Assembly: GCA_949825045.1 (NCBI GenBank)
Contig: OX463816.1
Span: 20,719,243 to 20,783,242 of the forward strand
Direction of reading: 5' to 3'
Length of the DNA: 64,000 nt
Origin: Argyresthia goedartella
Lineage: Eukaryota; Arthropoda; Insecta; Lepidoptera; Argyresthiidae
The notes under the pieces are model-generated. The model was not told where the DNA came from and searched no databases. It saw only the letters and a list, made by a program, of their open reading frames with translations. How positions within the stretch are numbered: the first letter of the stretch is position 1; the number at the start of each line of letters is the position of its first letter. Both the position numbers and the translations under genes were made by a program. Positions 11,600-57,000 of this stretch are shown here, piece after piece.

Positions 11600-13405
11600 A
11601 TGTCGTTATCTGAAATCCAGAAGGGTGTTTCTAAGGAACTCAGATGGTTTTCCTCCGCACACGGTCTGATAGACCGTTTAGATAGGCATGATGTGGTATT
11701 GGAGCGGTCTATGGACGTTAAGGAACGTTACAATAGGGTGCTCGAATTGTCCGCGCAGGCGGAATCAGTTGATGGTTGCGCACCTGACAGGCTGTCACGG
11801 TTGCTAGGGGATGTCGACCAATGTATGGAGATGGCAGCTGCTATCACGCAGAAGGCTGCGGACAAACGTAGACAGCGCGAGTCCAGCCATGGTGGTGACA
11901 TTGAAGCACCTCTGCCGCTTCAGGGTTCGGGGTCCAGGTTACCTGCCATAACTATGCCTACTTTTGACGGAGTGTCCGGTGAATGGATGAGCTTCATCAA
12001 TCTGTTCGACAGTTTGGTGCACATGCGATCGGACATTACCAAGTCTGTCAAGATGGCTCAGCTGGTGGCAGCATTGAGGGGTGAGCCTAGGGAGCTGGTC
12101 GCTCATTTGACAGTTACGGAGGGTAACTATGAAACGGCCAGGCAATTGTTGGTCAGACGTTACCATAACAAACGGAGGTTGGCCGATGCCCAACTGAACC
12201 GTTTGTTTAGTATCCCGGTTGTGAACAAGGTCGGGGCCATACAGACGGAGGTTTTGAACCCATTGTTGTCCGTCACCAAGGCTCTAGAGAATCTTGGACT
12301 TCCGGTTGGTGAATGGTCGTACCTACTGTTGTACATTGTACTTTCCCGCCTACCCGCTGACGTGCAGACTCGTTTCGAACAGTCTCACGGGAGGTCGGCC
12401 GAGGACCTGCCCGCCTTCTCCGACTTGGTCGGATTCTTGGAAGAGGAGGCTCGACGGGCAGAGAATTTGGGGTTGACGGTCACCCATCCTTCGGAGCCAC
12501 AGAGAGCTGCCGGGAGCGCTGTGAGTAGGGGCCCTCCGACGAGGAAGGACCGCACCAACCGGCAGTCGTATGGGACTGTGAGTGAATTGACCCCACATGG
12601 TGAGACCTGCCCATGTTGTAGGCAGATTGGCCATGCTGTGGCCAATTGCAATAAGTTCGGGGAACTTAGGGTTCAGGGACGGCGCCGGATGGCCAAGCAG
12701 CGGAGCTGGTGTTTCCTGTGCCTCGGGCCACACATGGCTAGGGACTGCACGCGCACAAAAATGTGCGGATATTGTGGTGGGGCCCACAACAATCTGTTGT
12801 GCATGAACCGGTCCGGCCAACAGCCTCCACAGGGCCGTATCCAGGGTGACACGGCATGGGGCCCTGAGAATTCGTTTGCGACTCGGAGCGCAACTCAGGG
12901 GCCAACGTCCCCACGTCCACAGGGTCGTACCCAGGGTGACACGGCATGGGGCCCTGAGAATTCGTTTGCGACTCGGAGCGCAACTCAAGGGCCAACTTGC
13001 CCACGTGCACAGGGCAGTACCAGGGTGCAGGGCCGCACTCAGGACCATTACATGGGGGGCCCTGAGTTTTCGGTTGCGACTCAGCATCCGACCCAGCGGG
13101 ACATTGGGTGTGTTGAGCAGGCCGTAACGGGCGGGTGGCATGGGAAACCTTCGAGCTATGCGGGTGCGGTTCGGACGCCGCCTCAGTTGTCGCCCCGCTC
13201 GTCGCCTCGTCCTCGTCGGTCACATGTGATGTCCCCCCCGCTCATGGAGCGGCCACGGTTGAATTCACGCCCACCCCCCTTTACGGGGAATCGTAGGTTG
13301 GGAATGGAACCGGCGCGTGGGCCATTTGTACAATGGGACCCTCTGGCGTATAGCTGCATACCTGATCGGTTACAGGCACAGTGGGGCCCCGGGGGTCCTC
13401 GCTAG
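11600..13405 (+). CDS. BEL/Pao Gag
   Basis: Structural capsid/nucleocapsid protein of 601 codons starting at ATG (MSLSEIQKGVSKELRW). The central part contains LPAITMPTFDGVSGEW and FINLFDSLVHMRSD, typical of the BEL Gag domain. Three Cys-rich knuckles follow: CPCCRQIGHAVANC, CFLCLGPHMARDC and CGYCGGAHNNLLC. After them a ~31-residue segment (QGDTAWGPENSFATRSAT) is tandemly duplicated at about 12829-13010, with a third diverged copy. The frame ends at TAG (13403-13405) and pol continues in the same frame. Confidence 0.9.
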   Translation: MSLSEIQKGVSKELRWFSSAHGLIDRLDRHDVVLERSMDVKERYNRVLELSAQAESVDGCAPDRLSRLLGDVDQCMEMAAAITQKAADKRRQRESSHGGDIEAPLPLQGSGSRLPAITMPTFDGVSGEWMSFINLFDSLVHMRSDITKSVKMAQLVAALRGEPRELVAHLTVTEGNYETARQLLVRRYHNKRRLADAQLNRLFSIPVVNKVGAIQTEVLNPLLSVTKALENLGLPVGEWSYLLLYIVLSRLPADVQTRFEQSHGRSAEDLPAFSDLVGFLEEEARRAENLGLTVTHPSEPQRAAGSAVSRGPPTRKDRTNRQSYGTVSELTPHGETCPCCRQIGHAVANCNKFGELRVQGRRRMAKQRSWCFLCLGPHMARDCTRTKMCGYCGGAHNNLLCMNRSGQQPPQGRIQGDTAWGPENSFATRSATQGPTSPRPQGRTQGDTAWGPENSFATRSATQGPTCPRAQGSTRVQGRTQDHYMGGPEFSVATQHPTQRDIGCVEQAVTGGWHGKPSSYAGAVRTPPQLSPRSSPRPRRSHVMSPPLMERPRLNSRPPPFTGNRRLGMEPARGPFVQWDPLAYSCIPDRLQAQWGPGGPR

Positions 13406-26953: not shown

Positions 26954-27068
26954 CTACTGTATCGCGCAGACGGCGGAGGTCCCGGGCGCGTGGTCCAGGA
27001 GGGCGCGCCGACGCTTGATGCCTTCGAGGTAGACTTCGCGGTTGAACATGCCCGCTGCTAGGGGCACC
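26954..27068 (-). CDS. INPP5E exon 10 (terminal)
   Basis: Acceptor cattgcag at 27069-27076. Begins with one base completing a Val codon, then [20 protein letters not shown] and ends TSAVCAIQ stop. The Cys-Ala-Ile-Gln terminus is a CaaX prenylation signal like that of vertebrate INPP5E. Its phase fits exon 9 and also every intact satellite monomer. Confidence 0.93.
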
Positions 27069-30000
27069 CTGCAATGTGGGAGAGGAATACTTCAACTATT
27101 ATTCGCCAACAAATTCTAGCAAAAAATGTGTACAGCTAACAGTAGTTCTATACATTAATCGTCATTTTGCCAGTAATTGCGAGTTATTGTAGCGAGCTTA
27201 TTTAACATATAGCACACATCGTTTCGCCGTGTCTCTCATCATCCTGGGCTGAAAGCGCACACACACACACACAGATTTGAGCCCCACGTTAACGGAACTG
27301 AAGCCTGACATGCAGGGTGTTCAAATCCAGCCTTCTACGCACCTGCGCCAACGCCGCATATCACTCACACTTAGATAGCGCCGAACCGGCACGGTACACC
27401 CGCACTCAATTGTGGGTTATTTCGTTGGTTCACTTAAAGTTTCATCTTGAGGCACTTCACTGTTCTCCCATGGATGAAAAAACATTTTCAGTATAGGTAC
27501 GGAGCAGTCAACAAAAACACAAGCTTTCACTGCGGGGCGCTTCGATACAAACTAGCAAATTCACTTGCGGCCGCGGACGTTTTCGTGTACGCCGCACGTG
27601 ACTTTCTTTGATTGAGTGCCGGCATTCTTGGGCAAGAGTCTTGCGTGCCAAGGCGGCGCGATCAAAGACGACGGTATCTAAGTGAACAGACTTTATCTCA
27701 TATCACTACTGTTTATGTACTCACACATCAGTGCCGGGCCGCAGTGAGGCGGAGAACAAGCCCCACACGGGCTTGTGGTGGCTCGTGCATATCGACTGCA
27801 CCGAGTTGTACGAACCTGCAACTCGGTACAGTCGATATGTACGAGCGCCACATGTAACTACTGTTTATGTACTCACACATCAGTACGGGGCCGCAGTGAA
27901 GCTGAGAACAAGCCCCACACGGGCTTGTGGTCGCTCGTGCATATCGACTGCACCGAATTGTATGAACCTGCACCTGCACTACATATAATACTGTGTATGT
28001 ACTCACACATCAGTACGGGGCCGCAGTGAAGCTGAGAACAGGCCCCACACGGGCTTGTGGTCGCTCGTGCATATCGACTGCACCGAATTGTATGAACCTG
28101 CACCTGCACTACATATAGTACTGTGTATGTACTCACACATCAGTGCCGGGCCGCAGTGAGGAGGAGAACGGGCCCCACACGGGCTTTTGGTCGCTCGTGC
28201 ATATCGACTGCACCGAGTTGTACGCACCTGCACCTGCACTACATATAGTACTGTGTATGTACTCACACATCAGTGCCGGGCCGCAGTGAGGCGGAGAATA
28301 AGCCCCACACGGGCTTGTGGTCGCTCGTGCATATCGACTGCACCGAGTTGTACGAACCTGCAACTCGGTACAGTCGATATGTACGAGCGCCACATGTAAC
28401 TACTGTTTATGTACTCACACATCAGTACGGGGCCGCAGTGAAGCTGAGAACAGGCCCCACACGGGCTTGTGGTCGCTCGTGCATATCGACTGCACCGAAT
28501 TGTATGAACCTGCACCTGCGCCACATATCACTATTGCTTATGAACTCACACATCAGTGCCGGCCGCAGTGAGGCGGAGAAAAAGCCCCACAAGGGCTTGT
28601 GGTCGCTCGTGCATATCGACTGCACCGAGTTGTACGAACCTGCAACTCGGTAGTCGATATGTACGAGCGCCACATGTAACTACTGTTTATGTACTCACAC
28701 ATCAGTACGGGGCCGCAGTGAAGTTGACAACAGGCCCCACACGGGCTTGTGGTCGCTCGTGCATATCGACTGTACCGAGTTGTACGCACCTGCACCTGCG
28801 CTACATATAGTACTGTGTATGTACTCACACATCAGTGCCAGGCCACAGAGAGGCGGAGAACGGACCCACAAGGGCTTGTGGTCGCTCTTGTATATCGACT
28901 GCACCGAGTTGTACGCACCTGCACCTGCGCTACATATAGTACTGTGTATGTACTCACACATCAGTACGGGGCCGCAGTGAGGCGGAGAACGAACCCACAC
29001 GGGCTTGTGGTCGCTCGTGCATATCGACTGCACCGAGTTGTACGCACCTGCACCTGCACTACACATAGTACTGTGGATGTACTCACACATCAGTACGGGG
29101 CTGCAGTGAGGCGGAGAACGGACCCACACGGGCTTGTGGTCGCTCGTGCATATCGACTGCACCGAGTTGTACGCACCTGCACCTGCACTACATATAGTAC
29201 TGTGTATGTACTCACACATCAGTGCCGGGCCAGGGTGAGGCGGAGAACGGACCCACACGGGCTTGTGGTCGCTCGTGCATATCGACTGCACAGAGTTGTA
29301 CGCACCTGCACCTGCGCTACATATAGTACTGTGTATATACTCACACATCAGTGCCGGGCCGCAGTGAGGCGGAGAACAAGCCCCACACGGGCTTGTGGTC
29401 GCTCGTGCATATCGACTGCACCGAGTTGTACGAACCTGCACCTGCACTACATATAGTACTGTGTATGTACTCACACATCAGTGCCGGGCCGCAGTGAGGC
29501 GGAGAACAAGCCCCACACGGGCTCGTGGTCGCTCGTGCATATCGACTGCACCGAGTTGTACGAACCTGCACCTGCACTACATATAGTACTGTGTATGTAC
29601 TCACACATCAGTGCCGGGCCGCAGTGAGGCGGAGAACAAGCCCCACACGGGCTTTTGGTCGCTCGTGGATATCGACTGCACCGAGTTGTACGAACCTGCA
29701 CCTGCACTACATATAGTACTGTGTATGTACTCACACATCAGTGCCGGGCCACAGTGAGGCGGAGAACGGACCCACACGGGCTTGTGGTCGCTCGTGCATA
29801 TCGACTGCACCGAGTTGTACGCACCTGCACCTGCACTACATATAGTACTGTGTATGTACTCACACATCAGTGCCGGGCCACAGTGAGGCGGAGAACGGAC
29901 CCACACGGGCTTGTGGTCGCTCGTGCATATCGACTGCACAGAGTTGTACGCACCTGCACCTGCGCTACATATAGTACTGTGTATGTACTCACACATCAGT

Positions 30001-33000
30001 GCCGGGCCGCAGTGAGGCGGAGAACAAGCCCCACACGGGCTTGTGGTCGCTCGTGCATATCGACTGCACCGAGTTGTACGAACCTGCACCTGCACTACAT
30101 ATAGTACTGTGTATGTACTCACACATCAGTGCCGGGCCGCAGTGAGGCGGAAAACAAGCCCCACACGGGCTCGTGGTCGCTCGTGCATATCGACTGCACC
30201 GAGTTGTACGAACCTGCACCTGCACTACATATAGTACTGTGTATGTACTCACACATCAGTGCCGGGCCGCAGTGAGGCGGAGAACAAGCCCCACACGGGC
30301 TTTTGGTCGCTCGTGGATATCGACTGCACCGAGTTGTACGAACCTGCACCTGCACTACATATAGTACTGTGTATGTACTCACACATCAGTGCCGGGCCAC
30401 AGTGAGGCGGAGAACGGGCCCCACACGGGCTTTTGGTCGCTCGTGCATATCGACTGCACCGAGTTGTACGAACCTGCAACTGCACTACATATAGTACTGT
30501 GTATGTACTCACACATCAGTGCCGGGCCGTAGTGAGGCGGAGAACAAGCCCCACACGGGCTTGTGGTCACTCGTGCATATCGACTGCACCGAGTTGTACG
30601 AACCTGCAACTCGGTACAGTCGATATGTACGAGCGCCACATGTAACTACTGTTTATGTACTCACACATCAGTACGGGGCCGCAGTGAAGCTGAGAACAAG
30701 CCCCACACGGGCTTGTGGTCGCTCGTGCATATCGACTGCACCGAATTGTATGAACCTGCACCTGCACTACATATAGTACTGTGTATGTACTCACACATCA
30801 GTACGGGGCCGCAGTGAAGCTGAGAACAGGCCCCACACGGGCTTGTGGTCGCTCGTGCATATCGACTGCACCGAATTGTATGAACCTGCACCTGCACTAC
30901 ATATAGTACTGTGTATGTACTCACACATCAGTGCCGGGCCGCAGTGAGGCGGAGAACGGGCCCCACACGGGCTTTTGGTCGCTCGTGCATATCGACTGCA
31001 CCGAGTTGTACGCACCTGCACCTGCACTACATATAGTACTGTGTATGTACTCACACATCAGTGCCGGGCCGCAGTGAGGCGGAGAACAAGCCCCACACGG
31101 GCTTGTGGTCGCTCGTGCATATCGACTGCACCGAGTTGTACGAACCTGCAACTCGGTACAGTCGATATGTACGAGCGCCACATGTAACTACTGTTTATGT
31201 ACTCACACATCAGTACGGGGCCGCAGTGAAGCTGAGAACAGGCCCCACACGGGCTTGTGGTCGCTCGTGCATATCGACTGCACCGAATTGTATGAACCTG
31301 CACCTGCGCCACATATCACTACTGCTTATGTACTCACACATCAGTGCCGGCCGCAGTGAGGCGGAGAACAAGCCCCACACGGGCTTTTGGTCGCTCGTGG
31401 ATATCGACTGCACCGAGTTGTACGAACCTGCACCTGCACTACATATAGTACTGTGTATGTACTCACACATCAGTGCCGGGCCACAGCGAGGCGGAGAAAG
31501 GGCCCCACACGGGCTTTTGGTCGCTCGTGCTTATCGACTGCACCGAGTTGTACGAACCTGGAACTGCACTACATATAGTACTGTGTATGTACTCACACAT
31601 CAGTGCCGGGCCGTTGTGAGGCGGAGAACAAGCCCCACACGGGCTTGTGGTCACTCGTGCATATCGACTGCACCGAGTTGTACGAACCTGCAACTCGGTA
31701 CAGTCGATATGTACGAGCGCCACATGTAACTACTGTTTACGTACTCACACATCAGTACGGGGCAGCAGTGAAGCTGAGAACAAGCCCCACACGGGCTTGT
31801 GGTCGCTCGTGCATATCGACTGCACCGAATTGTATGAACCTGCACCTGCACTACATATAGTACTGTGTATGTACTCACACATCAGTACGGGGCCGCAGTG
31901 AAGCTTAGAACAGGCCCCACACGGGCTTGTGGTCGCTCGTGCATATCGACTGCACCGAATTGTATGAACCTGCACCTGCACTACATATAGTACTGTGTAT
32001 GTACTCACACATCAGTGCCGGGCCGCAGTGAGGCGGAGAACGGGCCCCACACGGGCTTTTGGTCGCTCGTGCATATCGACTGCACCGAGTTGTACGCACC
32101 TGCACCTGCACTACATATAGTACTGTGTATGTACTCACACATCAGTGCCGGGCCGCAGTGAGGCGGAGAACAAGCCCCACACGGGCTTGTGGTCGCTCGT
32201 GCATATCGACTGCACCGAGTTGTACGAACCTGCAACTCGGTACAGTCGATATGTACGAGCGCCACATGTAACTACTGTTTATGTACTCACACATCAGTAC
32301 GGGGCCGCAGTGAAGCTGAGAACAGGCCCCACACGGGCTTGTGGTCGCTCGTGCATATCGACTGCACCGAATTGTATGAACCTGCATCTGCGCCACATAT
32401 CACTACTGCTTATGTACTCACACATCAGTGCCGGCCGCAGTGAGGCGGAGAAAAAGCCCCACAAGGGCTTGTGGTCGCTCGTGCATATCGACTGCACCGA
32501 GTTGTACGAACCTGCACCTGCGCCACATATCACTACTGCTTATGTACTCACACATCAGTGCCGGGCCGCAGTTAGGCGGAGAACAAGCCCCACACGGGCT
32601 TGTGGTCGCTCGTGCATATCGACTGCACCGAGTTGTACGAACCTGCACCTGCGCCACATATCACTACTGCTTATGTACTCACACATCAGTGCCGGGCCGC
32701 AGTGAGGCGGAGAACAAGCCCCACACGGGCTTGTGGTCGCTCGTGCATATCGACTGCACCGAGTTGTACGAACCTGCAACTGCGCCACATATCACTACTG
32801 CTTATGTACTCACACATCAGTGCCGGGCTGCAGTGAGGCGGAGAACAAGCCCCACACGGGCTTGTGGTCGCTCGTGCATATCGACTGCACCGAGTTGTAC
32901 GAAGCTGCACCTACGCCACATATCACTACTGCTTATGTACTCACACATCAGTGCCGGGCCGCAGTGAGGCGGAGAACAAGCCCCACACGGGCTTGTGGTC

Positions 33001-36000
33001 GCTCGTGCATATCGACTGCACCGAGTTGTACGAACCTGCAACTCGGTACAGTATCGACTGTAACTGTATAAACAGTAGTTACATGTGGCGCTCGTACATA
33101 TCGATGTACGAGCGCCACATGTAACTACTGTTTATGTACTCACACATCAGTACGGGGCCGCAGTGAAGCTGAGAACAAGCCCCACACGGGCTTGTGGTCG
33201 CTCGTGCATATCGACTGCACCGAATTGTATGAACCTGCACCTGCGCCACATATCACTATTGCTTATGAACTCACACATCAGTGCCGGCCGCAGTGAGGCG
33301 GAGAAAAAGCCCCACAAGGGCTTGTGGTCGCTCGTGCATATCGACTGCACCGAGTTGTACGAACCTGCAACTCGGTAGTCGATATGTACGAGCGCCACAT
33401 GTAACTACTGTTTATGTACTCACACATCAGTACGGGGCCGCAGTGAAGCTGAGAACAGGCCCCACACGGGCTTGTGGTCGCTCGTGCATATCGACTGCAC
33501 CGAATTGTATGAACCTGCATCTGCGCCACATATCACTACTGCTTATGTACTCACACATCAGTGCCGGCCGCAGTGAGGCGGAGAAAAAGCCCCACAAGGG
33601 CTTGTGGTCGCTCGTGCATATCGACTGCACCGAGTTGTACGAACCTGCACCTGCGCCACATATCACTACTGCTTATGTACTCACACATCAGTGCCGGGCC
33701 GCAGTTAGGCGGAGAACAAGCCCCACACGGGCTTGTGGTCGCTCGTGCATATCGACTGCACCGAGTTGTACGAACCTGCACCTGCGCCACATATCACTAC
33801 TGCTTATGTACTCACACATCAGTGCCGGGCCGCAGTGAGGCGGAGAACAAGCCCCACACGGGCTTGTGGTCGCTCGTGCATATCGACTGCACCGAGTTGT
33901 ACGAACCTGCAACTGCGCCACATATCACTACTGCTTATGTACTCACACATCAGTGCCGGGCCGCAGTGAGGCGGAGAACAAGCCCCACACGGGCTTGTGG
34001 TCGCTCGTGCATATCGACTGCACCGAGTTGTACGAAGCTGCACCTACGCCACATATCACTACTGCTTATGTACTCACACATCAGTGCCGGGCCGCAGTGA
34101 GGCGGAGAACAAGCCCCACACGGGCTTGTGGTCGCTCGTGCATATCGACTGCACCGAGTTGTACGAACCTGCAACTCGGTACAGTATCGACTGTAACTGT
34201 ATAAACAGTAGTTACATGTGGCGCTCGTACATATCGATGTACGAGCGCCACATGTAACTACTGTTTATGTACTCACACATCAGTACGGGGCCGCAGTGAA
34301 GCTGAGAACAAGCCCCACACGGGCTTGTGGTCGCTCGTGCATATCGACTGCACCGAATTGTATGAACCTGCACCTGCACTACATATAGTACTGTGTATGT
34401 ACTCACACATCAGTACGGGGCCGCAGTGAAGCTGAGAACAGGCCCCACACGGGCTTGTGGTCGCTCGTGCATATCGACTGCACCGAATTGTATGAACCTG
34501 CACCTGCACTACATATAGTACTGTGTATGTACTCACACATCAGTGCCGGGCCGCAGTGAGGCGGAGAACGGGCCCCACACGGGCTTTTGGTCGCTCGTGC
34601 ATATCGACTGCACCGAGTTGTACGCACCTGCACCTGCACTACATATAGTACTGTGTATGTACTCACACATCAGTGCCGGGCCGCAGTGAGGCGGAGAACA
34701 AGCCCCACACGGGCTTGTGGTCGCTCGTGCATATCGACTGCACCGAGTTGTACGAACCTGCAACTCGGTACAGTCGATATGTACGAGCGCCACATGTAAC
34801 TACTGTTTATGTATTCACACATCAGTACGGGGCCGCAGTGAAGCTGAGAACAGGCCCCACACGGGCTTGTGGTCGCTCGTGCATATCGACTGCACCGAAT
34901 TGTATGAACCTGCACCTGCGCCACATATCACTACTGCTTATGTACTCACACATCAGTGCCGGCCGCAGTGAGGCGGAGAAAAAGTCCCACAAGGGCTTGT
35001 GGTCGCTCGTGCATATCGACTGCACCGAGTTGTACGAACCTGCACCTGCGCCACATATCACTACTGCTTATGTACTCACACATCAGTGCCGGGCCGCAGT
35101 GAGGCGGAGAACAAGCCCCACACGGGCTTGTGGTCGCTCGTGCATATCGACTGCACCGAGTTGTACGAACCTGCACCTGCGCCACATACCACTACTGCTT
35201 ATGTACTCACACATCAGTGCCGGGCCGCAGTGAGGCGGAGAACAAGCCCCACACGGGCTTGTGGTCGCTCGTGCATATCGACTGCACCGAGTTGTACGAA
35301 CCTGCACCTGCGCCACATATCACTACTGCTTATGTACTCACACATCAGTGCCGCGCCGCAGTGAGGCGGAGAACAAGCCCCACACGGGCTTGTGGTCGCT
35401 CGTGCATATCGACTGCACCGAGTTGTACGAACCTGCACCTACGCCACATATCACTACTGCTTATGTACTCACACATCAGTGCCGGGCCGCAGTGAGGCGG
35501 AGAACAAGCCCCACACGGGCTTGTGGTCGCTCGTGCATATCGACTGCACCGAGTTGTACGAACCTGCACCTGCGCCACATATCACTACTGCTTATGTACT
35601 CACACATCAGTGCCGGGCCGCAGTAAGGCGGAGAACAAGCCCCACAAGGGCTCTTGGTCGCTCGTGCAAATCGACTGCACCGAGTTGTACGAACCTGCAC
35701 CTGCGCCACATATCACTACTGCTTATGTACTCACACATCAGTGCCGGGCCGCAGTGAGGCGGAGAACAAGCCCCACACGGGCTTGTGGTCGCTCGTGCAT
35801 ATCGACTGCACCGAGTTGTACGAACCTGCACCTGCGCCACATATCACTACTGCTTATGTACTCACACATCAGTGCCGGGCCGCAGTGAGGCGGAGAACAA
35901 GCCCCACAAGGGCTCGTGGTCGCTCGTGCATATCGACTGCACCGAGTTGTACGAACCTGCACCTGCGCCACATATCACTACTGCTTATGTACTCACACAT

Positions 36001-39000
36001 CAGTGCCGGGCCGCAGTGAGGCGGAGAACAAGCCCCACACGGGCTTGTGGTTGCTCGTGCATATCGACTGCACCGAGTTGTACGAACCTGCACCTGCGCC
36101 ACATATCACTACTGCTTATGTACTCACACATCAGTGCCGGGCCGCAGTGAGGCGGAGAACAAGCCCCACACGGGCTTGTGGTCGCTCGTGCATATCGACT
36201 GCACCGAGTTGTACGAACCTGTGTAAGGATGGGCCTATTACGTGTGGAATGAGGCAGTCACATGTTCGAAAGACAGTTGTATATTGAGACATGAATCATA
36301 ATAAAGAGGCTATTTATAGATGTAAGTAGGGTTCAGGTGTGCATACACTACACCTTCCCCCTTTTTTGAAAGTAAAAAATATGCATATAATTTTTATGAC
36401 ATTTAACAATTTAGATCTAATAACATCAAAACAACAATCTAATAAGTAACTAATTTCTGTAAAAATAACAATAAAATAAATCACCTGTGTAAAAATATCA
36501 ATTGAAAATTTAAAATCTGTAAAAAATATAACAAATGAAAACCTTTTTTATTTTTGTTTGCCTGATACAATTTTGGAAATACTATCAAAATAAACTATAA
36601 CCATTTATTACTATTTCTCACCCCTTTTTAACACCTATTTTTAACAACTTCATTAAAGTACATTTATAATGATTACATAAGAACATTAGGTTACATATTT
36701 TCTAAAACTAATTTTGAATACACGAAATAAACGAATAAGTACATACACAAGTAAATACACGAAACCAAAATATCTATCTGTTTTAGGTGTAGGGTTGACG
36801 ACATGAACGAATTTTATACATTTAAACAAAATAACACAAAACCATAAAATTAATGAAACGCAAACACAAAATTACACATTTCTCAATCCTTCATCAAACA
36901 TTAGAACGATTTATTTTTAACACATTGAACTTTTACACAAAATTATAACAATTAATCAATTGCAATTTCAAAATTCCACGTTTCTCATTTCTTCTAAATC
37001 TCTTTCCTTTCTTCACGCATTTATTTACTTTGTCAAAACTTATTCCATAATCACTATCAACTTTTTATTTCTTTATACATTACATACCTACTTCCATCTC
37101 AAAAGAAAATCGTCACATCTTATAAAAATATAAATCTTCATTGCAAAACTATCAAAAATATACTCGCTTTTCATAAACAATCGCTATCAATCAAAGTCTC
37201 TATTTTATTATAATCTCCTTATCACTTCATATAGGTACTTTAATTATCGGGATCCGGACCCTTAATATTCACATGTAGTGAGTGCACATTTATAGGTACT
37301 TTTTATACACACTGGTATTTACTTTATAAGGTACTTTTTATAATAATACTTAAATACATAGACTAATAGTACCTGGCTCGCGAGCTTATTAGGTCATCGA
37401 TATCCAACTTTCTCACAAAGGAAACTCGTCCACATCATGATCGAAGAGGAAGGATTCGTGCCTTGTACCTTGTACCTTTGAGACTTTGATGAAAATACAA
37501 TAACATATCGGACTCGCCAATAGTTACGTACCATACTAAAAACATAACTTATACTCAATCCATACGAATCCTTCGAATTTTAAGATATTCTGTAAAGATT
37601 GGATGATCAGTCCAACTTTTCTCGAAAACTTAACAAACGAAGTGTTCCCAACTAACTTGCTCTGTGGCCTAGAGTAACAATCCTGCACATTCCACACCTT
37701 CTCTCAAATTCATACTTTTTATTCCTAAACAAAAACCAACATTCCCAAATCCAAACAAAATCAACTTTCCTATGTAATACTATCATAAAACTCAAAAATA
37801 TCAAATATGAAATAAACCTTCATAACAACGATTAACTTTTAATTTAATTCAATTTCCATACTTTTCAACTCTCAATATAAAACAAGAAGAAGTGACCATA
37901 TCCGCTGGTCAGACTATAATTCTATTAATAGACTCGATTGCAATCTGTAAAATAAAATAAACGTAAATGCAATCTCGAAACAATCTTTTGTATTAAACTA
38001 ACGTAAGTGGTTCCGTCGTTAGTAATGTATTTTAAATCTGAGGTTAAACTACTTTATCTGTAAATTATTCTGAAAACTAATGAAACATAAAAATCTGAAC
38101 ACACAAAAAAAAATAACTCAAGTTATCTTCTCTCTAAGACGTACTTATTTAGCATACTAAATATTTATTACACACACTCAACTGATTTTCGTACATACTC
38201 ATACTATTAAAATTCATTTCATACTGTAATTTAAAAAATGGTTCCAAACTTTATCTCTTTGCGGTACCCTAAGCTTGCTATCAATCATTCATCACCTTTT
38301 ACGTATCTCCCATATTAGTCAACTGAAACTAAAATCTTTCGCTCTATGCAAGTCGAACTGTAGTAACATGAACTTATAATAACAATTATGTTACGTCTAT
38401 AATCGATCCAAGTGTTCAGTTCTACCTAATTTGGATTATTCTGCAGTGTTGCATGTCCATATTTGGATTGCTTGCGAGAACTGTATTGAATTACTTGTAA
38501 TAACTGTGATTGTTACCAAGACATGAATCATTTATGTACTTGATTGTACATTTGGAGTAAATTTGAATTATGAGGCAATAATTTAATAAAATAGTAGAAC
38601 GGCTATAAAACAACAAAACTTTTATCTTCTTACTTCACACATTAAACCACATTCTTCACATATTTCTCAAAATCGTCTCCTCCAAAAATAAACTACCATC
38701 AAAATCCTCATCCAAAATAACTCGTGTCAAACTAATTCAATTTACTTTACGGCCGTCATAAATATCTCCATTCCCAAAAAAAAACAGTTATCAAACATTT
38801 ATTCATACTTCTCTTGCTAACTGTACTGTACTACTAACTTTTCGTTCTATGCCATTCATCATAATACTATTTTAGTTACTTCATGCAATCTTCATTTGGA
38901 AAAATAATTATATTAATATTGATCGTATCGTCAACCCTTTGACAATACAAAATCTAGCCAAAACTTAAATATACTAATCGACAAATAATTTAATTTACTT

Positions 39001-42000
39001 ACATGTCATACGTATAATAAAACCCATTGTCCAAAAAACACATTGACGCCACGACGTCATCGCCCGTGTCGCATGCAGCTCGCTCGGAGTCAGCACATCC
39101 TGGGATCCGTACATCTCCCAGCTGCGCTTGACCCGTACGGTTACGCCCAGCGCCCTGCTTCCACATCATCAGGCTTAGGAAATCGCCCGGCACCCGGCAG
39201 CACAAATCTTCTGTAATATTTTATTTTCTCTTCTTGTGTAAATATATTCTTTCTTCTATAATTATCTTCTTTCTTCTTTTTATCCGTCTTCTTCTGGCTG
39301 CAATCCGCTAATGTCGTGGTCTCTTCATAGGTCATCCCGTTCTTTTTCTCTATATATTTATCTTCGTTATATTTCTCTTTTCCAAGTTCTTCAAGTATTA
39401 TTTAAATATTATTTGAATTTATTTAATCGCCATTCGGCACAGCACTACCTCGCGAGAGGTAGGCTGGCCTGGCACGGTCGCCATGTAAGGATGGGCCTAT
39501 TACGTGTGGAATGAGGCAGTCACATGTTCGAAAGACAGTTGTATATTGAGACATGAATCATAATAAAGAGGCTATTTATAGATGTAAGTAGGGTTCAGGT
39601 GTGCATACACTACACCTGCACCTGCGCCACATGTCACTACTGCTTATGTACTCACACATCAGTGCCGGGCCGCAGTGAGGCGGAGAACAAGCCCCACACG
39701 GGCTTGTGGTCGCTCGTGCATATCGACTGCACCGAGTTGTACGAACCTGCACCTGCGCCACACATCACTACTGCTTATGTACTCACACATCAGTGCCGGG
39801 CCGCAGTGAGGCGGAGAACAAGCCCCACACGGGCTTGTGGTCGCTCGTGCATATCGACTGCACCGAGTTGTACGAACCTGCACCTGCGCCACATATCACT
39901 ACTGCTTATGTACTCACACATCAGTGCCGGACCGCAGTGAGGCGGAGAACAAGCCCCACACGGGCTTGTGGTCGCTCGTGCATATCGACTGCACCGAGTT
40001 TTACGAACCTGCACCTGCGCCACATATCACTACTGCTTATGTACTCACACATCAGTGCCGGGCCGCAGTGAGGCGGAGAACAAGCCCCACACGGGCTTGT
40101 GGTCGCTCGTGCATATCGACTGCACCGAGTTGTACGCCAGGTTCTTGAGCCCATACGAACTTGTGGGCGGCATTGCGCTGACACGACGAAAACCTGCAAT
40201 CGTAGTAGGTGTTTTAGAAAATAAACGGTCGGACTCGGCACCAAGGGTTCCGTACACACCTGTCGATTTGTGTATGTATGTTGGTATATTTAAATAGTAA
40301 GTTCATCACGCTCTTACAAATGCTTACGCTTATACAGTATGTACAGCTACATATGTACTTTCCCAATTTGTTTTTATTGTATACCTAATATCAAGCAATA
40401 TCAGCAAAATTGTGACATACCATATGGCGGTATCTTTTTATTGCGTTGACCCATGTTTTTTTACAACTTCAGAGACCATAAACCTGGGTCTCAATTATCT
40501 TATGGGAAACGCAGAGCGATATTGGCTGTCAGTCTCCAATCAAAATAGGCACCGCCGGCAAGCATTTGGCGCCTTTGGGAGCAATGGATGCGCTATCGGT
40601 ATACGTTTTCGATAAACAGAAAGGGCCCCTGAGTAATTCAACTTGATAACGCCACATTCCTGAGAAATAGGGTCTTGATAGACATACAAATGGACAACGA
40701 AGTGATCCTATAAGAGTTCCTTATTTCCTTTTAAGGGTCGGAAGCCTAAAAATAAGAAACTTTACAATGTACACTTTCTGCTATACATACATAGCAAAAA
40801 GAAAATTAGCGTCATGCCTTTACCCATACTGTGTGGTAGGAGCGCTCTGGGACTAAAGCGACCTGACTGATCGCTGCATCAAGACGTAATATACCATATT
40901 CAGAGCAGCGAGCTAACAAAGCGCTTTCTCCGTCATACTCATCATCATCATCAGCCTGTCAGTGAACCCACTGCTGAGTATAGGCCTCCTCATATACACG
41001 CTACTCAACCCGGTCCCGTGCAACCCGGGCCCACTGCTTTCCTGTTACAATATTGTTCTTCAATAACAAAGGAAATATAAGCGTTAAGGCGCTGTTAAGG
41101 TCATCGCTAACTTATATGACCGGACTGGGAGCGGCCCCACCCAGTATTTTTTTTTATTCAAATATGGGTTTTAAATTGTGCCCTGTGGATATACTATCGA
41201 GTGGTGTGTTTGCAGCAAGCTCGCTTAAAGCAAGCTGTCTGCTGAGTTATGACAACAATGTTAAGTATACCTAGATCACATTAGTCACCTGCGAAAGCGG
41301 AGTTGGTATTGAGGTTCATATTGCGCGACTTGAAGAGTATGCGGTCGGTGTACGCGGGCGCGCGCTGCTTACTTGAAGTGTCGAAGTTCTGAGTGCCCGG
41401 GTCGTACTGGGAAATGAGGAGTAGAACATATACATACAGGCATATGTTGCCTCTTGCCATAGAATACCCTTCGTCGTGGGAAACAGTGGCCTAATTTTGT
41501 AATTCTGATACCACCAAAAACATAAATGTGAACATGGGAGCCAAGTTCAATATCAAATTTATCGTGGCTGTCGACTTCGCGGACAAAAGATTTGAGATCT
41601 AAATGAATGCCAAATCTTTAACTTAAATTTGTGTTAAGTTATCTACTTTGTGTAACGTTAGAATTTCAGGATTATTATAGGTAAAGAACTTGGCATTGAT
41701 CTCAAATCTATTGTCGGCGAAGTCGGCAGCCACGATATTGCTGATATTGAACTGGGCTCCCATTTCCACATTTATGTTTTTGGTGGGATATCATTACTTT
41801 TTATTAATATTGGAATACAAGTCTCCTGCAGCCTTTAATTCAGAAACCACTCCATAAGTTGTCGGATGAAGCATACTTGCGCAGTACCCTCCTTCTGAGA
41901 CGTATGGTTTACCATATTGGACGCAAGTGTAGGCATTTAAATCTTCCCAGTTACGATATACATACTCTACTATGAACTCATGCAGCCCATTGGTTTGTTG

Positions 42001-45000: not shown

Positions 45001-48000
45001 TTCTTGATGTCCATGATGTAAATTATATATATTTCACAGAATGTTTCCATTTATGCTTGTTTTCATGTTCTTTTCTGTGTTTTGAATATTTTCCTAGCTG
45101 CGGTGGGGTGGGAAAATGTTTGCCCCTTGTAACACAATTCGCTCTAAATATTTCACAACACTATGTAACGGCATTAAAGGCTAAGGTCGAGCCACCGCTA
45201 TCAGTAGCTATGATCGTCTATTCTATCTACCCCAAAAGAGATGTCCCGATTCAGCTGTAAAATTTGTAAGTTAAGAATGATAAGTCTGAATTTCTCGTTC
45301 GTTGAGAAGTTCGTTAGACGTACAATAGTCGAACGGAAGATTGATTCAGGAAGTTACAGTTTCAAGTTAAACAGAGAAAGCATATATGCCCGCAAGCCGG
45401 TATTTCGCATCAGTTAGCGGTGTATTGCGCCAGATCGATCATTGTTGTATTTTGTGTGATGGTACCATTTATTTTTTGTATATATGGGCGCTTGGAACTT
45501 CTTTTAGTGGTCGACCACAATTTATAATATTCGTTTGGGATATCGTATAGATATCCGTCGTAGTTTTACGACGTGAGTACACTCGGCGCCACGAATAAAG
45601 AGCTCTCGGAGAAACTGGCGGGGATTACTGCGCATGTGTACAGTCGCGGCATAATTCCGAAGTGCGTTTTTAGGGTTAGTGTGAAGGAATGAGTGTTCAG
45701 GACTTTCTTCACTTCTATTTTTTCTCTGTTTGATATTTTGTTGATTGGGATATTAGCCGATGTAAATAATGGACTTTGTGTCAAATAAACTATAGGTACT
45801 CTCTATTTTAAGCTACTTGTATTCATAGCTTGTCCAAATTCTTCGCGATTTTGCTCCAAGTTATGGCAAATTTCGGTTAATATGTTTTGGTCTGTAACAC
45901 TTATTGACCTGTTTCTAACTTCATTTAAATTTTGAATTGTGGCTTCTAACAAGTTTTGTAGTGTGATGGAAGAGGTGGCTGATGTGGTCTTCGCCAGTTT
46001 TAAATCAGCAACGATTTCATCAGACTCTTTTTTGATATAACAGTTCACATCGTAAACCATTTTTCTAGCTTGCCTAGTCAGTACTTTATTTTTCGGCATT
46101 TTCGACCGGGGCGAAAGATAACGTTGGGTAATATTGTATGCGACTGTACTCAAGAAGCTTCGAGACGTGCTTTCGGTGCGGGCATCGGGAAGCGACTGAT
46201 CAACGAATCAGGTGCCGGCGCTGACTACCGCCCCCGTCGCTCCTCACTTCCCCGCGCCAAACACTTGTGAAAAGTGACTACTGCGCATTCAAGGACAAAG
46301 CTCTTTAGTCGTGGCGCCGAGTATACTCAATGATATTTCATGTGCTCGCTAGTAGCGGCTAGTGGTGGTTCCAATTATATATGTAGTTCACGGCAATAAC
46401 GATCCGAATAGACCGGTTTACACAATTGCGATTTGATTTTCCGAAATGGGTTTGAACTAGCGGTTACCTCAAAAGGTCCGTAACGTTTTGAAACCTTCAA
46501 CTCTGCGCAATTTGAGCTGGATGTTATCGAAACGTTGTCATTAGCGCTTTAGGAGATCTAACCCTCACCATAGCGAAGTGCATAGTTCGATAAATACCGA
46601 TCTATGAATTCCACTGACCTCAGCACGACCTCGGCCGAGCCTAATCATATATATTTGACTCAGCCTACACATTAGACCTCCAGCGAAATTTACATTTAAT
46701 TTAAAGATGCAACTTGAATACAAACTGACCCAAGGCAAAGCAAAACAATCTACCCGGTCCTAAACAATGAACTTTAGACTGTAATTTGATCTCTTCGCGC
46801 GTCCCCGACAACACTAAAATGTCAAAATATCAACAGGATAGGTTATCTGTAATGACACCGGTTTAACTTTGTTCTGAATTTGTTATTTCCATCCGCGGAA
46901 CCTCATCGATCAAACAGTCTCCCTTTGCCCTGCCAACCTAGGTTTAGCCGCAACTTAAGTCCTGTCTAGCCTAGTCTAAAATCCTAGTGTTATACCACGT
47001 CCATTATCGACACCACTCGAAAATGGTTGAGTTTGATTTGAATGTGCTTGTATGTTTAATGACTGTGTGTGTGGGAATTTCAAAACTCGCTACTCAAAAG
47101 GAATGAGGAGAGGATTAGCCCGCGAATATCCTAAGAGCCAATCCAGGAACCCTATGGTGAAGGAAAAAGGAATTTAGGGTCGCTCCAAGCCCAGACTCAG
47201 ACTCAGATCAATTACCTACAAGTTCTTATCTAACGACCCAAGGATAGTTTTGGAATTTGGGGTAGGTTGATTTAAAGGATAGGAACCGAGGTATATCTCG
47301 GCGCTTCAGACACTCACGAAAATCCACTGAAACTCGCAATCACAATTCGTCCAGTTCTGACGCGTAAAACGGCAGACCAAAACTGTTTAGAACTGCTGAA
47401 AGACGACTGTCACAGTAGCTTAACGCTGAGACTGAATGCTCTCCAATCAATCAAGAATTCATCTCACGCACCCATTCTGGGGCGTGGGGAGTCAGGGTCA
47501 GATCATCGGATCTCTTCCTGAAGAAGCGCCTCTGTCCACTCCTATGGACAGGTCATCGGGGGTCCCTCGCGGGCGGTGGAGATCTTCTCACGAGGGGTGT
47601 TCCGTTGGATGATCACCGGCTAGGCAACCAGGTCGCGTGGCAGGCGGCGGCGGTCGGGCGGGCGCGCGTGGTACGGCGCCATGTCGCGGATATGCGGATG
47701 TAGTGAGCTATCCGCACGCGCGAACATGCCCTTCGCCAGCCTCTGGACAAACTGGTCCACTGGTTCCCATCTGAGGTCCCTCTGGATTGTCGCATTCCTC
47801 ACGTAGCGGGGGGCGTCGACGATGGTACGCAAAGAGAGGTTCTCTTGGGCTCGGAGTCTCCGTTTATTCGTCTCCGAGCACAGGGCGTACCATGCCGGGG
47901 CCGCGTAGGTGAGGCGGGATCTCACGTAGCACTTGTAGATCCCGAGCTTCGCCCTCAGAGGGAGGCTGGAGTCGAGAAGTGGACGCAGCTTGGCGCGTGC

Positions 48001-51000
48001 CACCTTGACCTGGTTGACGACGTTGTCGACATGTTGCTTCATGGTGAGCCGGCGATCGATGGTCACTCCCAGGTACTTCACCTGCGGAGACCACGCGATG
48101 TCCTGTCCTTGGAGCTGGAGTGGTGGTGGAAGGGGGGACTGGCCTGTGATGAGCGCCTGCGTCTTCCCAACGTTGACGGACAACCGCCACTTGGCGAGCC
48201 AGTCGGGCAAGATGTCCAGGGTGCGCTGCAGTTTGACGGCAGCGTGCCGTGCCTGGATCGACGACGCGTAGTAGGCAGCGTCGTCGGCGAAGAGTGCCAG
48301 CTGGGCACCCGGCCCGACGGGGATGTCGTCCGTATATTGGGAGTAACAGGCTGGAGATAGGCAGCACCCCTGAGGGACGCCGGCTGCAACGGGGTGTTCC
48401 TCGGAGACGGCGTCTTCCACCATCACTCGGAAGCGGCGATTCTTCAGGAAGGAGGCGATGATCTGGACCAGTCTTCTTGGGGCTGGAGACGTCGACAATT
48501 TGTACAGCAACCCCTCGTGCCATACTCTGTCAAACGCCTTCTCCATGTCCAGGAGTACTGCGACAGTGTATTCCTTCTTGTTTAAACAAACCGTCATGTC
48601 ATTCAGTACTCTGGTGAACTGAAGCGTCGTAGAATGCTCGGGCCTGAAGCCGAACTGTTCTGGGCGCGGCTGGATGTGGGGCAGTAGCTTCGCCAGCAGG
48701 AGTTTCTCAAACACCTTTGAGATGGTACTCAGTAGAGTTATCGCCGATAGCTCTCAGGCAGCTTGGAGTCCTTGCCCGGCTTGGGCAACATGATGACCAA
48801 GCCCTCCTTCCATTGGGTTGGGAAGTGGCCCGTGCGCAAGATACCGTTAAACAGGCGCGTAACGGCCGCCACAGTACGTGGCGGCAAATGTAGCAGCGCC
48901 ATGTTAGGTATGCGGTCTGCGCCCGGGGCTTTCCTGGGCTTGGTACGTCTGAATGCACGCATGATCTGGCCGGGCGTGATGACGGTGGGGTCCTCTTCGG
49001 GAGCTATCGGCGAGGCGAAGTACTCTCGCAGGTGTCTCTCGACTGCTGCGACGTGCTCCACATCATCCGTAGGGTTCGGCTTGAACTGCTTCTCGAGGCA
49101 TTCGGCGAAGATCTCCGCACGGTCTTGGGCTCGAAATCTTGGTAGGCCGTCGCTGCCCAGGATTGGTCGGACGGGAGTTGGAGTAGTCGACAAATCCCGG
49201 CATAGGCGATGCACGGAGGGGACGTGGTCGCCCATGGACTCGACGTGGCGTTCCCAAGATTCTTCGGCGTGGAGATCAAGTCGGCGCTTCAGCTCTGCCG
49301 TCATGGCGTTGAGCCTGGTCTTCATCGTTGGGCAGCGGGTTTGCTGCCACTGCTACTGCTGAATGCTCTCCCCTTCCCCGCTATCGTATTTATAGACCCC
49401 ACATGTCTGGAAAAAAATGGCGTCCTTTGCGAACACGCGCTGCCCAAGCGAAGCTTCTTATCTCTAACTACACAGGGTCCAATTTCAACCAAACATGCCA
49501 TGCAGATCCGCCGTTCTACAAACTTTGTGTACGCAAATTCACTGTGATCAACCGTAGGTTATCACTCAAGCCATTCGGTATTGCCGATACACAAAATCTG
49601 TTGATCGCTGACCATAAAAGCTTGTTGCGATTAATTTAAGCCTTCCCGACCGCTAGCGCGCTAGACAAAGATCACTAGAATGATATTCAGACTCGTGATG
49701 TCAAACTCGCCAAATCGTACCAAACAAACGCAATTGTATATTTGCAGTCAACATAATAGCTTTCTCCGTATCGTTCCATAATAACCTTCCATTATTTAGT
49801 TATTCATAATTTATTCAGCGCGCAGCCAAATCGGCTCTGATCCCTACACATTCCGCAGGAATGCGACAAAAAAACCTGACCTGTAACCTTCCTCGAACCA
49901 TCCCACGCGCTCGGCTCATTGTTTTTTGCTAACTTACCCTGAGCTACTCAAAACCCCAACCGTTATATGAACCGACTCTCGTATTCAAAACAGCGCGGCG
50001 ATGGGCTAGCCCTCTGTCACGCAAAATGAAGTATCAAATGTACTGACTCTCGTGTACCATTACAACTAACACTTTAGAATGAAATTTTACACCCTCGCGA
50101 CGTTATTTTCACTTATCTATACATCAAATCATTATATACAAATCAAATTTCTTTGCACAAAAACAATCGCTGTCATGCAAAAATAAACCTGGCCGTTTTG
50201 CTGCCGCTTTTCCATCTACATTTTTTTCAAACGCCCTTCGTTTTATCTATACGAAATAAATACAAAGTTGTTCACCACAAATTAACGAATCACATGATCC
50301 ATAGACCACATTGATACAATGCTGCGGAACAGCTACAAACAATTGTTTTCAAACGCATCTTAATGTCAGATGTCTAATGTCAAGTGATTGAGAAATTCCG
50401 TCACGTCACTTCACTTCTCTGTTTTGCTGTGAGCTACTAGTTATAATTTTCTTCAAAGTTCTTAAATTTTTTTTTTTTGATGTCTGTAATTTTTTTATTG
50501 TTTGTTATCTGTTAATTTTATTGTTGGAGCAAGTTCGTGTGAAGTGAGTGACCCAGGCGTAGGCCCTACCCATTCGGGCGCAGGCCCTAACTCCTCGGGC
50601 GCAGGCTCTAGTCACACGGGCGAATAACCAAGCATCCAGCACTGGTCAACAACGTAAGCGTCACCGTGCTCTAAATGTAAATGAAGACGTCATAGAGTCG
50701 CCCAAAATGAAAAGAGCTAAACAAAACCCACTTCATTTCACTCACACACACGCACTCACCCTTACACACACACACACACACACCCTCACCCTCACACACA
50801 CACACACCCTCATGCATATACACACGCAGGTCATATAAGGAGTCTTAATAACTTTCTTTTTACTTAACATATTTTTGTAAATACTTACCTTATTTTCGTG
50901 TTTTCTTTACGCTAACATGTTTACAAACGATCTATGTAACTGAGTTAAGTAAATACTGAAGCCTGTAACACAGTGTATACTACCACAGGCTTCAGGGTTA

Positions 51001-54000: not shown

Positions 54001-57000
54001 GGATAGGTATTACCTATCTAGGTTTTATACAAAACAGATAGCACAGTCACTATCTTATTTTATTTTGAACTCAGTCAAGTTTTTGACTAATGAAACGCCT
54101 GCTTCTATTGAGCAGTGTAATAATAATGACATGTACTCCTTGGAATCTGTTCCAAGCTCTTTAAATTAACCCATAGGACAACAGAGAGTAACTCTGGCAG
54201 TAATATTAATATTTGTATAAATATACCTTCATCTTGCCCATTAAATCAAGTTACTAGTAATGAAAAATGTAAAAGTAAGAATATTTTAAACGTGGTTCAT
54301 CAAAATATACAGGGCATGTTAAGTAAAGAACTGGAAATTGAGTTATTCATGAACTGTAATAATATTGATATTTTATGTATAACAGAGCACTTTTTAAAGA
54401 GTTATCAGTTCATGTTCAACTTTAATAACCACCACGTTGCTAGTTCGTTCAACAGAAAAACAGCTGATCGCGGTGGCTCCTTAATACTTGTAAATAATAG
54501 TTTTAAATATAAGGAACGAGTTGACATAGTGAGCCTGTCTGTTGAGCGTACCATGGAAATAGCCTGTATTGAACTTGAACAACTTATTGTAATGAGCGTA
54601 TACAGACCACCAGATTCATCCTTTGATTTATTCGAAAAGAAAATGGATGAAGTGTTGATTAAAATCAGCGATAAAAACAATTTTTTTATAATTTGTGGTG
54701 ATTTTAATGTTAATCTGTTAGAGGATAATAATATTTGTACTAGATTAAAATCTTTATTTTTATGTCACAACATGAACTATCTGTTTTTGGAGCCTACTAG
54801 AATTACTGCAACATCTGCTACCTGCATTGACAATATATTTACTAACATTACGCCCATTTTCAAATCGGTCATCAATAAATTAACCTCTGATCACTCTGGT
54901 CAGATAGGTATATTCAATATTAAAATAAAAAAGGACCAAAAAGAGGATATTACATGTGTGCCCGTTAGTGACACTCGGCTTGAACACTACAGGAATAATA
55001 TTTTAGATAAACTATGGGAAATACCATACAGTGACGATCCAAATTTGTTGTACAACTCAGTATATAACCTTGTCAAAAATGAATATGATACGGTATTTAA
55101 ATAAAAAACTATAAAAGTTAATAACAAAGCTTTGTTTAGTGATTGGGCGACAGTTGGAATTCATAGGAGCAGACGAAGATTATATGAACTCTATGAAGAG
55201 AAATCATATAACAAAAATACGGCCTTTCTAGATTATGTTCGTAGTTATTCAAAAATGTTTAAACGCGTTTGTGCCGTAGCTAAATCTAATTTCATTAAAA
55301 ACAAAATTGAATCTAGTAGCAATGTAATGAAAACGACTTGGCAAATTATAAACAGAGAGACTGGAAAGGCCAAAGCTACACATAATAACTTCAAGCTTAA
55401 GATAGATAATCAATTGCTAAGTACAGACCTAGAAGTAGCAAAAGCTTTCGAAAATTTCTTTACGGACATTCCAGTTTCAACAACCAAGTCTTTAAATTCA
55501 TCTCCCGCTGCTGCTGAATCTATACTTAAACAAAACTTTGAGGAATGTAAAACAGATTTTAAATTTAGGCACGTAAATAATGAAGACATTGTAAAAGCGT
55601 TTAAATTCCTGGAAATGAAAAAGACAGCTGACGCCCATGGTCTATCAGTAAAAATTATTAGTTCCATTGTAGATTGTATTGCACCTCACCTTTGTTGTAT
55701 ATTTAATCAATGTATAGATAGTGGTGTGTTTCCTGACTTGATGAAACTAAGTAAAGTTATACCTTTATTCAAAGCTGGTAGTACATCAGACCCCACCAAT
55801 TTTAGACCCATATCGATACTACCAACGCTTAGCAAAATATTTGAAAAACTCATACTTAATCAATTGCAAAGTCATTTTTATCTCAATAATTTAATTCATA
55901 TTGCTCAGTTTGGTTTCACAAAGGGTCGTTCAACAGCCGATGCTGGTGTTGAACTAATCGACAATATTTTTGATGCCTGGGAAGACGCAATGGAAGCAAT
56001 AGGTGTCTTCTGCGATCTATCCAAGGCTTTTGATTGCGTCCATCATGACACTCTTGTCAGGAAGTTACGCCATTATGGTGTAAAAGATCAGGCACTTGGC
56101 CTTCTGGAGTCATATCTAACAGATAGGGTTCAGATGGTCGATGTTAATGGGAAAAGATCACCTGGGTCTTCAATAAGTATGGGCGTACCGCAAGGTTCAA
56201 TTCTTGGTCCTTTCTTGTTTTTAGTATATATTAATGATTTACCTTACCTTGTTAAAGCAAAACATGGGTTAGTATTGTTTGCCGATGATACTTCTTTGAT
56301 ATTTAAAGTTAAAAGACAGCAATCAAATTATGACGAGGTAAACAATGCTATCTCTAGTATAGTGAACTGGTTTACTGTTAACAATTTATTACTTAATAGA
56401 AAAGAAAACTAAATGTATTAAATTCGTGTTACCCAATGTGAACCCGGTAACTACAGACATATTTATAAAAGGACAGAGATTGGACCTTGTGCAGTCGACT
56501 GTCTTTTTGGGCATTACTTTAGACGCCAAACTACAATGGGATCCTCATATAAATAAATTGTCGAACAGACTGAGTTCGGCAGCGTTCGCAGTTAAAAAAA
56601 TTAGAGCTCTTACCGACGTAGACACCGCTAGACTAGTCTACTTTAGTTACTTTCATAGTCTAATGACCTATGGTATTTTATTGTGGGGTCACGCTGCGAA
56701 TGCTAATAGTATATTTATTCTGCAGAAACGGGCTGTTCGTGCAATTTATAGATTAGGGCCTAGAGTGTCACTGAGGGAAAAGTTTAAAGAAATCAATATT
56801 CTGACATTTGTGTCTCAATATATCTATGACAATCTTGTGCATGTAAAAAGAAATATAACTAATTTTCAGAAGTACAGTGATATACACAATTTTAATACTA
56901 GAAATAAAGACAAGTTGGTTGCTTATGTAAGCCGACTACATAAAATTAGTAATTCTTTTAAAGGCAATTGTATACGCTATTACAATAAGGTCACTACTGA

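What the first reader, a model, noticed from the sequence alone, without database searches (positions are those of the whole stretch)
27681..40193. A host gene's catalytic exon has become a satellite inside its own intron
The ~131-bp satellite monomer, read on the minus strand, is the 3' part of INPP5E exon 9 ([14 protein letters not shown]), its exact splice donor (GATGT/GTGAGTAC) and ~40 bp of intron. The genuine exon 9 (40049-40193) lies at the array's upstream edge, and exon 10 (26954-27068) lies downstream, in matching phase. I count about 66 extra copies. Tandem exon duplications are known, but dozens of copies of one catalytic exon forming a satellite between exons of the parent gene would be exceptional.
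Basis: partly seen in the sequence, partly recalled or inferred. Interest (0 to 1): 0.97.

Follow-up and report, generated by a model that had tools for sequence, protein, structure and literature searches.

The report
Exon end stuttered 66 times in intron
In the INPP5E gene of what is likely a moth, the end of one exon together with its splice site is repeated 66 more times in the next intron, probably as a mutational accident that would be spliced out; the same kind of 'exon stuttering' was described in chicken, and this looks like a first case in an insect.

Summary
A ten-exon INPP5E gene lies on the minus strand, predicted to encode 641 aa (best solved relative 2xsw, E 8e-92). Its ninth exon (40049-40193) abuts a tandem array whose units, typically 130/131 bp, hold the last 87 nt of the exon, the donor GATGT|GTGAGT and about 44 nt of intron. 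There are 67 copies with the genuine one; 65 of 66 extras keep the donor word. All matches found in the 1.1-Gb assembly lie at this locus. Most likely it was born by a microhomology duplication (GCGTA), grown by unequal exchange, and is spliced out. Use as alternative exons is unlikely: units lack a convincing acceptor, all 65 later intact donors give an immediate stop, and variants show no overall coding constraint. 'Exceptional' needs tempering: Hron et al. 2026 described the same kind of event, 'exon stuttering', mainly on chicken dot chromosomes (1-44 copies). This is a larger, more regular insect case. A Plutella xylostella INPP5E prediction shows a likely parallel at exon 7.

The parts
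40049..40193 (-). Genuine exon 9 of INPP5E (145 nt), with the SDHKPVW motif; acceptor TTGCAG, donor GTGAGT
   Evidence: Gene model; PDB 2xsw alignment; homologues
40049..40135 (-). The 87-nt end of exon 9 that is the exon part of the monomer
39615..40048 (-). Proximal part of the array: intron part of the genuine unit and 3 extra copies
36222..39614 (-). LTR element inserted in the array: two identical 131-bp LTRs, 4-bp target duplication CAGG
27699..36221 (-). Distal part of the array: 63 copies in three families (A-like, B-like, C-like with inverted exon pieces)
27366..27698 (-). 333-bp insertion with 9-bp target duplication AGTGATATG capping the array; dispersed repeat family in this genome
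27336..27350 (-). TGGCGCAGGTGCGTA: residue of the original intron that shares GCGTA with the exon; inferred birth breakpoint
27069..27356 (-). Remaining original intron 9 before exon 10 (inferred)
26954..27068 (-). Exon 10 with the C-terminal CaaX-like end CAIQ and stop codon
26954..62258 (-). Whole INPP5E coding region, ten exons, 641 aa predicted

Best explanation
This is an intronic tandem array in an INPP5E gene in which the last 87 nt of exon 9, its splice donor and about 44 nt of intron 9 are repeated 66 more times; it likely arose by a microhomology-mediated duplication enlarged by unequal exchange, and it is predicted to be removed with intron 9. Step 1 (inferred from sequence): a break or fork stall joined intron position GGTGCGTA|gaagg to exon position CCTGGCGTA|caact through the shared GCGTA, making a second exon end plus donor. 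Step 2 (inferred): unequal crossing over or conversion between neighbours multiplied it; long high-identity blocks inside the array are shown. Step 3 (inferred): template switching put inverted pieces of the exon into one lineage of copies, which then spread; the pieces themselves are shown. Step 4: two mobile elements sit in and at the end of the array (shown); that they came later is inferred from their target duplications within unit sequence. Step 5 (predicted): the genuine donor is used because only it belongs to an exon with a true acceptor. The genuine exon is expected to stay under selection as the fixed seed, while its copies drift.
For: The unit spans the exon-intron border and matches were found at this locus only. 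The distal flank, after the TSD-bounded insert, continues AGTGATATG..TGGCGCAGGTGCGTA; the core TGGCGCAGGTGC has its only occurrence in the window outside the array there, both strands, and 11 copies keep the matching junction GGTGCGTACAA. Internal blocks such as 1,332 bp at 99.1% and 1,010 bp at 99.7% fit unequal exchange. Exon-part identity falls with rank distance from the genuine exon (rho -0.41, nominal p 6e-4; copies are not independent). No coding constraint overall: 45 exon-part variants, 18 synonymous against 14.5 expected, P 0.12; 12 of 66 extra copies frameshifted, 4 with a stop inside. All 65 later intact donors give a stop right after ...PGTDV. Nine true acceptors have 0.50-0.80 pyrimidine in the 20-nt tract, the five pseudo-acceptor types that I chose 0.35-0.50.
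Against: No RNA or read data. Pyrimidine content overlaps at 0.50, and not every pseudo-acceptor type was scored, so some copies could be spliced at low level: 124 of 802 AG-to-donor pseudo-exons would keep the frame when inserted singly, 51 with the AG inside the exon part and 73 with it in the intron part. The donor is less variable than average: 1 of 9 columns variable, hypergeometric P 0.047; longest invariant run of 12 columns, P 0.04. A 15-column window test was not unusual (P 0.35). High-frequency variants are somewhat rich in synonymous changes (6 of 9, P 0.035). The most distal copy is 99% identical in its exon part, against a simple age gradient. The birth breakpoint rests on one flank; 38 copies have GGTTCGTACAA and 14 GGTTCATACAA at the junction instead, and the flank has six extra bases against the unit.
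Confidence: 0.8

Rival explanations
1. The copies are alternative or mutually exclusive exons that diversify the INPP5E C-terminal part.
For: 65 of 66 extra copies keep the donor word; 19 of 66 encode the same 28-aa peptide; 124 of 802 single pseudo-exons keep the frame.
Against: Units carry only the exon's 3' end and the acceptor types scored are weak; using a later donor instead of the genuine one leaves 0 of 65 open; no overall coding constraint; 12 of 66 copies frameshifted; none of the 120 listed homologues carries more than one SDHxPV motif.
Confidence: 0.04
2. The array is a selected regulator: many decoy donors that engage U1, or hairpins from inverted exon pieces that make double-stranded RNA matching exon 9, tune INPP5E output.
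For: Donor columns slightly less variable than expected (P about 0.04-0.05). 11 copies of 150 bp or more carry inverted exon pieces (7 of them as BLAST rows); one piece is predicted to pair with genuine exon 9 at -45 kcal/mol and to fold with the next unit.
Against: Tests are weak, uncorrected for relatedness of copies, and one of three was negative; inverted pieces occur only in one family of copies; no expression data.
Confidence: 0.1
3. The array is an assembly artefact, a true short duplication inflated by the assembler.
For: Reads are not available here; only 48 of 67 copies are distinct.
Against: Three families, different unit lengths, an LTR element with its target duplication inside a unit and a second insertion at the end are hard to make by assembly error; the contig is one of 89 in 1.1 Gb.
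Confidence: 0.06

Closest known systems
Exon stuttering (sequence stuttering) in chicken, mainly on dot chromosomes, Hron et al. 2026, PMC12954441 (outline with abstract, passages, sections 7 and 9 read)
   Same: Lateral part of a coding exon with its adjacent splice site is copied many times through the neighbouring intron, in imperfect tandem; the exon itself stays intact; source within 1 base of the exon border in over 90% of their cases.
   Different: Here an insect, not a bird; 66 extra copies against 1-44 (median 4) there; 87-nt exon part against median 36 (20-187) there; regular, satellite-like unit with families and inverted pieces; of this gene's exons only exon 9 shows copies in the window; length variation between individuals not known.
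Partial duplication of Y-linked gene exons in Drosophila, with microhomology-mediated end joining proposed, PMC8794474 (passages read)
   Same: Subsets of exons duplicated beside the presumed functional gene; microhomology-mediated repair proposed for duplications and the birth of new repeats.
   Different: Duplicated exons on Y chromosomes; the passages seen do not describe an exon-end array within the parent intron.
Plutella xylostella predicted INPP5E P0001 (728 aa)
   Same: Same gene; the end of exon 7 occurs three times in the predicted protein, the middle one frame-shifted (35 of 35 positions compatible, maximum 16 in 200 shuffles).
   Different: Different exon, few copies, seen only through a predicted protein; the 641-aa prediction P0002 of the same species lacks it.
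Tandem mutually exclusive exon clusters such as Dscam1 (recalled; one Dscam1 paper seen only as a search listing)
   Same: Many copies of one exon between constitutive exons.
   Different: Those are complete exons with both splice sites and open frames (recalled); these are not.

Membership tests
Exon stuttering (Hron et al. 2026) | Partial copies of an exon in the adjacent intron, starting at the exon border | tested here: met
   the 67 aligned units run through the exon's last base into intron sequence
Exon stuttering (Hron et al. 2026) | Copies include the adjacent splice site and intron | tested here: met
   donor GTGAGT in 66 of 67, about 44 nt of intron in the typical unit
Exon stuttering (Hron et al. 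2026) | Coding exon itself remains intact | tested here: met
   open ten-exon model; listed lepidopteran homologues mostly 84-91% identical over residues 240-641
Exon stuttering (Hron et al. 2026) | Strong length variation of the intron within the species | not testable with these tools
   One assembly only
Exon stuttering (Hron et al. 2026) | Association with GC-rich coding sequence (an association, mostly on bird dot chromosomes: 190 of 236 introns there, 46 elsewhere) | tested here: inconclusive
   exon 9 end 62% GC, window 43%; but exons 4, 7 and 10 are about as GC-rich or more and show no copies
Mutually exclusive exon cluster | Each copy is a full exon with acceptor and donor and an open frame | tested here: not met
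   only the exon's end is copied; 12 of 66 frameshifted
Satellite DNA family | Arrays at several loci or large heterochromatic blocks (recalled) | tested here: not met
   matches at one locus only (with the tool's caveat on lower bounds)
INPP5E | Inositol 5-phosphatase domain, INPP5E as best relative, C-terminal CaaX-like end | tested here: met
   2xsw E 8e-92; PF22669 E 1e-56; CAIQ

The most novel reading that the evidence does not exclude
Exon stuttering is not a bird peculiarity but a recurrent mutational process at GC-rich exon-intron borders in animals: moth INPP5E has been hit at least twice, at exon 9 here and at exon 7 in Plutella, and the selected exon acts as a permanent seed from which an intronic satellite is born and re-born.
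Probability: 0.3. Interest if true: 0.8.

Novelty: new variant of a known kind. Interest (0 to 1): 0.62.

Why it matters
It shows how a coding exon's edge can seed a tandem array while the gene model stays open, with the likely birth breakpoint still readable. It puts 'exon stuttering', described in birds in 2026 (and noted in gerbil genes as data not shown), into what is likely a moth genome, where it could be tested in short generations. It also gives a natural test of donor choice: one true 5' splice site followed by 65 intact copies of it. Intron 9 has grown from an inferred 0.31 kb to 12,980 nt.

Tried and rejected
Alternative-exon reading: tested by frame, stops, acceptors and synonymous counts and judged unlikely. 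The C-type family seemed at first to be a fossil of an older functional exon, because 6 of its 7 exon-part differences are synonymous (my count, chosen after seeing the data). The seventh, with its neighbour, turns a glycine codon into arginine, whereas 117 of the 120 listed homologues have glycine there and the other 3 (P0062, P0064, P0065) lack the stretch. I therefore do not claim it. Selection on the donor: two tests gave P about 0.04-0.05, uncorrected for relatedness, and a third was negative (P 0.35), so suggestive at most. A search for proteins resembling the array (260-aa frame) found one weak hit, an INPP5E fragment of Eurytemora (a copepod, recalled) with E 6.6e-4. The nine other exons gave no copies in the window, only matches of 13-17 nt. 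Eight literature searches were made; one direct precedent, PMC12954441, came up, and ('exon stuttering' and variants) returned that paper alone. The library holds open-licence papers only, so 'first in insects' rests on these searches. A Pfam scan of exon 9 alone found no family (it read frame 0, which is not the coding frame).

Full report
What is there. On the minus strand a ten-exon gene model runs from 62258 to 26954. All nine introns are GT-AG, phases match, and the predicted protein has 641 aa ending CAIQ. It matches PF22669 (E 1e-56) and, among solved structures, best the 72 kDa inositol polyphosphate 5-phosphatase 2xsw, i.e. INPP5E (E 8e-92); the exon 9 motif SDHKPVW aligns with SDHRPVY there. 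The homologue search (residues 240-641) reports 2,456 proteins among 7,993 scored candidates and lists 120; lepidopteran INPP5E proteins lead. A tree of 48 rows (47 of the 120 plus the window; many isoforms and most non-lepidopterans left out) puts the window with two Plutella rows (96/81, on a short branch of 0.053), while its highest identity is 81% to P0004 and by path the nearest rows are P0017, P0011, P0012 and P0003. Exon 9 matches one locus in 1,108,636,262 bases.

The array. The unit is the last 87 nt of exon 9 plus about 44 nt of intron 9. One search aligned 67 copies with the genuine one: 20 of 131 bp, 28 of 130, 7 of 129 (one of these only because the LTR element cuts it), 7 of 152, 2 of 150, 2 of 199 and one cut at 113. 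48 of 67 are distinct. 17 of 66 extra copies equal the exon part exactly and 5 equal the full unit. The donor word GATGTGTGAGT stands in 66 of 67. I see three families by eye: A (like the genuine unit), B (ACACAGTACT in the intron part, one base shorter) and C (11 copies of 150-199 bp with an inverted piece of the exon; 7 with the commonest form). Some units keep order in larger blocks: 1,332 bp at 99.1%, 1,182 bp at 98.7%, 1,010 bp at 99.7% (ungapped, 98% or more).

What interrupts it. 36222-39614 is a 3,393-bp element with two identical 131-bp LTRs and a CAGG duplication, inside a unit. At the distal end 27366-27698 is a 333-bp insert between two copies of AGTGATATG, and it belongs to a dispersed family: 40 scored matches, including itself, of 247 candidates. 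Accounting: 8,957 bp of array, 3,393 of LTR element, 333 of insert, 9 of target duplication and 288 of remaining intron give the 12,980-nt intron 9 (sums mine). Without them it would be about 0.31 kb (inferred).

Birth. After the insert the intron continues TGGCGCAGGTGCGTAgaagg; the genuine exon reads CCTGGCGTAcaactcgg. 11 copies have the junction GGTGCGTACAA, as a join through GCGTA would give; 38 have GGTTCGTACAA and 14 GGTTCATACAA, which I read as later change. Join by microhomology is inference from one flank. Such repair is proposed for Drosophila Y duplications and new repeats (PMC8794474, passages).

Does it do anything? Reading past the genuine donor gives ...PGTDV-stop, and none of 65 later intact donors keeps the frame. 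Of 802 AG-to-donor pseudo-exons, inserted singly, 124 keep the frame: 51 with the AG inside the exon part and 73 with it in the intron part. Five pseudo-acceptor types that I chose have 0.35-0.50 pyrimidine against 0.50-0.80 in the nine true ones. 45 exon-part variants: 18 synonymous, 25 non-synonymous, 2 stops; expected synonymous 14.5, P 0.12; singletons 8 of 25 against 7.6; frequent variants 6 of 9 against 3.1, P 0.035. Donor: 12 invariant columns in a row, P 0.04; 1 of 9 donor columns variable, P 0.047; 15-column window not unusual, P 0.35. So a neutral array is the best reading, with room for weak effects. The inverted pieces could pair with exon 9 (-45 kcal/mol predicted for one); nothing shows that they do.

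Known kind. Hron et al. 2026 (PMC12954441; outline with abstract, passages, sections 7 and 9) report in chicken, mostly on dot chromosomes (190 of 236 introns), that a lateral exon part with its donor or acceptor is copied through the intron: 115 genes, 236 introns, 1-44 copies, exon part 20-187 bp, spans 112-23,555 bp. They saw it in birds and, as data not shown, in gerbil genes. The present case meets the anatomical features, has more copies than their maximum, and is likely in an insect. A second lepidopteran hint is P0001, a Plutella xylostella prediction with exon 7's end three times over, the middle one in another frame (35 of 35 positions compatible with one DNA, 200 shuffles reach at most 16); P0002 of the same species lacks it, so polymorphism or a model/assembly difference is open.

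Counts were recomputed. It changed one statement of my draft: frame-keeping pseudo-exons do not mostly start inside the exon part (51 of 124).

Noticed in passing
protein P0001 (Plutella xylostella): Predicted INPP5E with exon 7's end in three tandem copies, the middle one frame-shifted, and what look like intron starts between them: a likely second exon-stuttering event in moth INPP5E.
   Followed up: partly
28695-29477 (-) and 28728-29456 (+): Where units are 129 bp, a multiple of three, long frames of 260 and 242 aa stay open through several units on both strands; one weak database hit for the minus frame.
   Followed up: partly
33032-33230 and 34165-34363: Two 199-bp units hold further inverted segments, suggesting repeated template switching.
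   Followed up: no
54130-56412 (+) and 47623-48753 (-): Endonuclease and reverse transcriptase frames of non-LTR-like retroelements inside intron 6 (Pfam Exo_endo_phos, RVT_1).
   Followed up: partly
11582-13405 (+): A 607-aa frame resembling a retroelement gag (recalled), with a 90-bp in-frame tandem repeat at 12826-13027.
   Followed up: no
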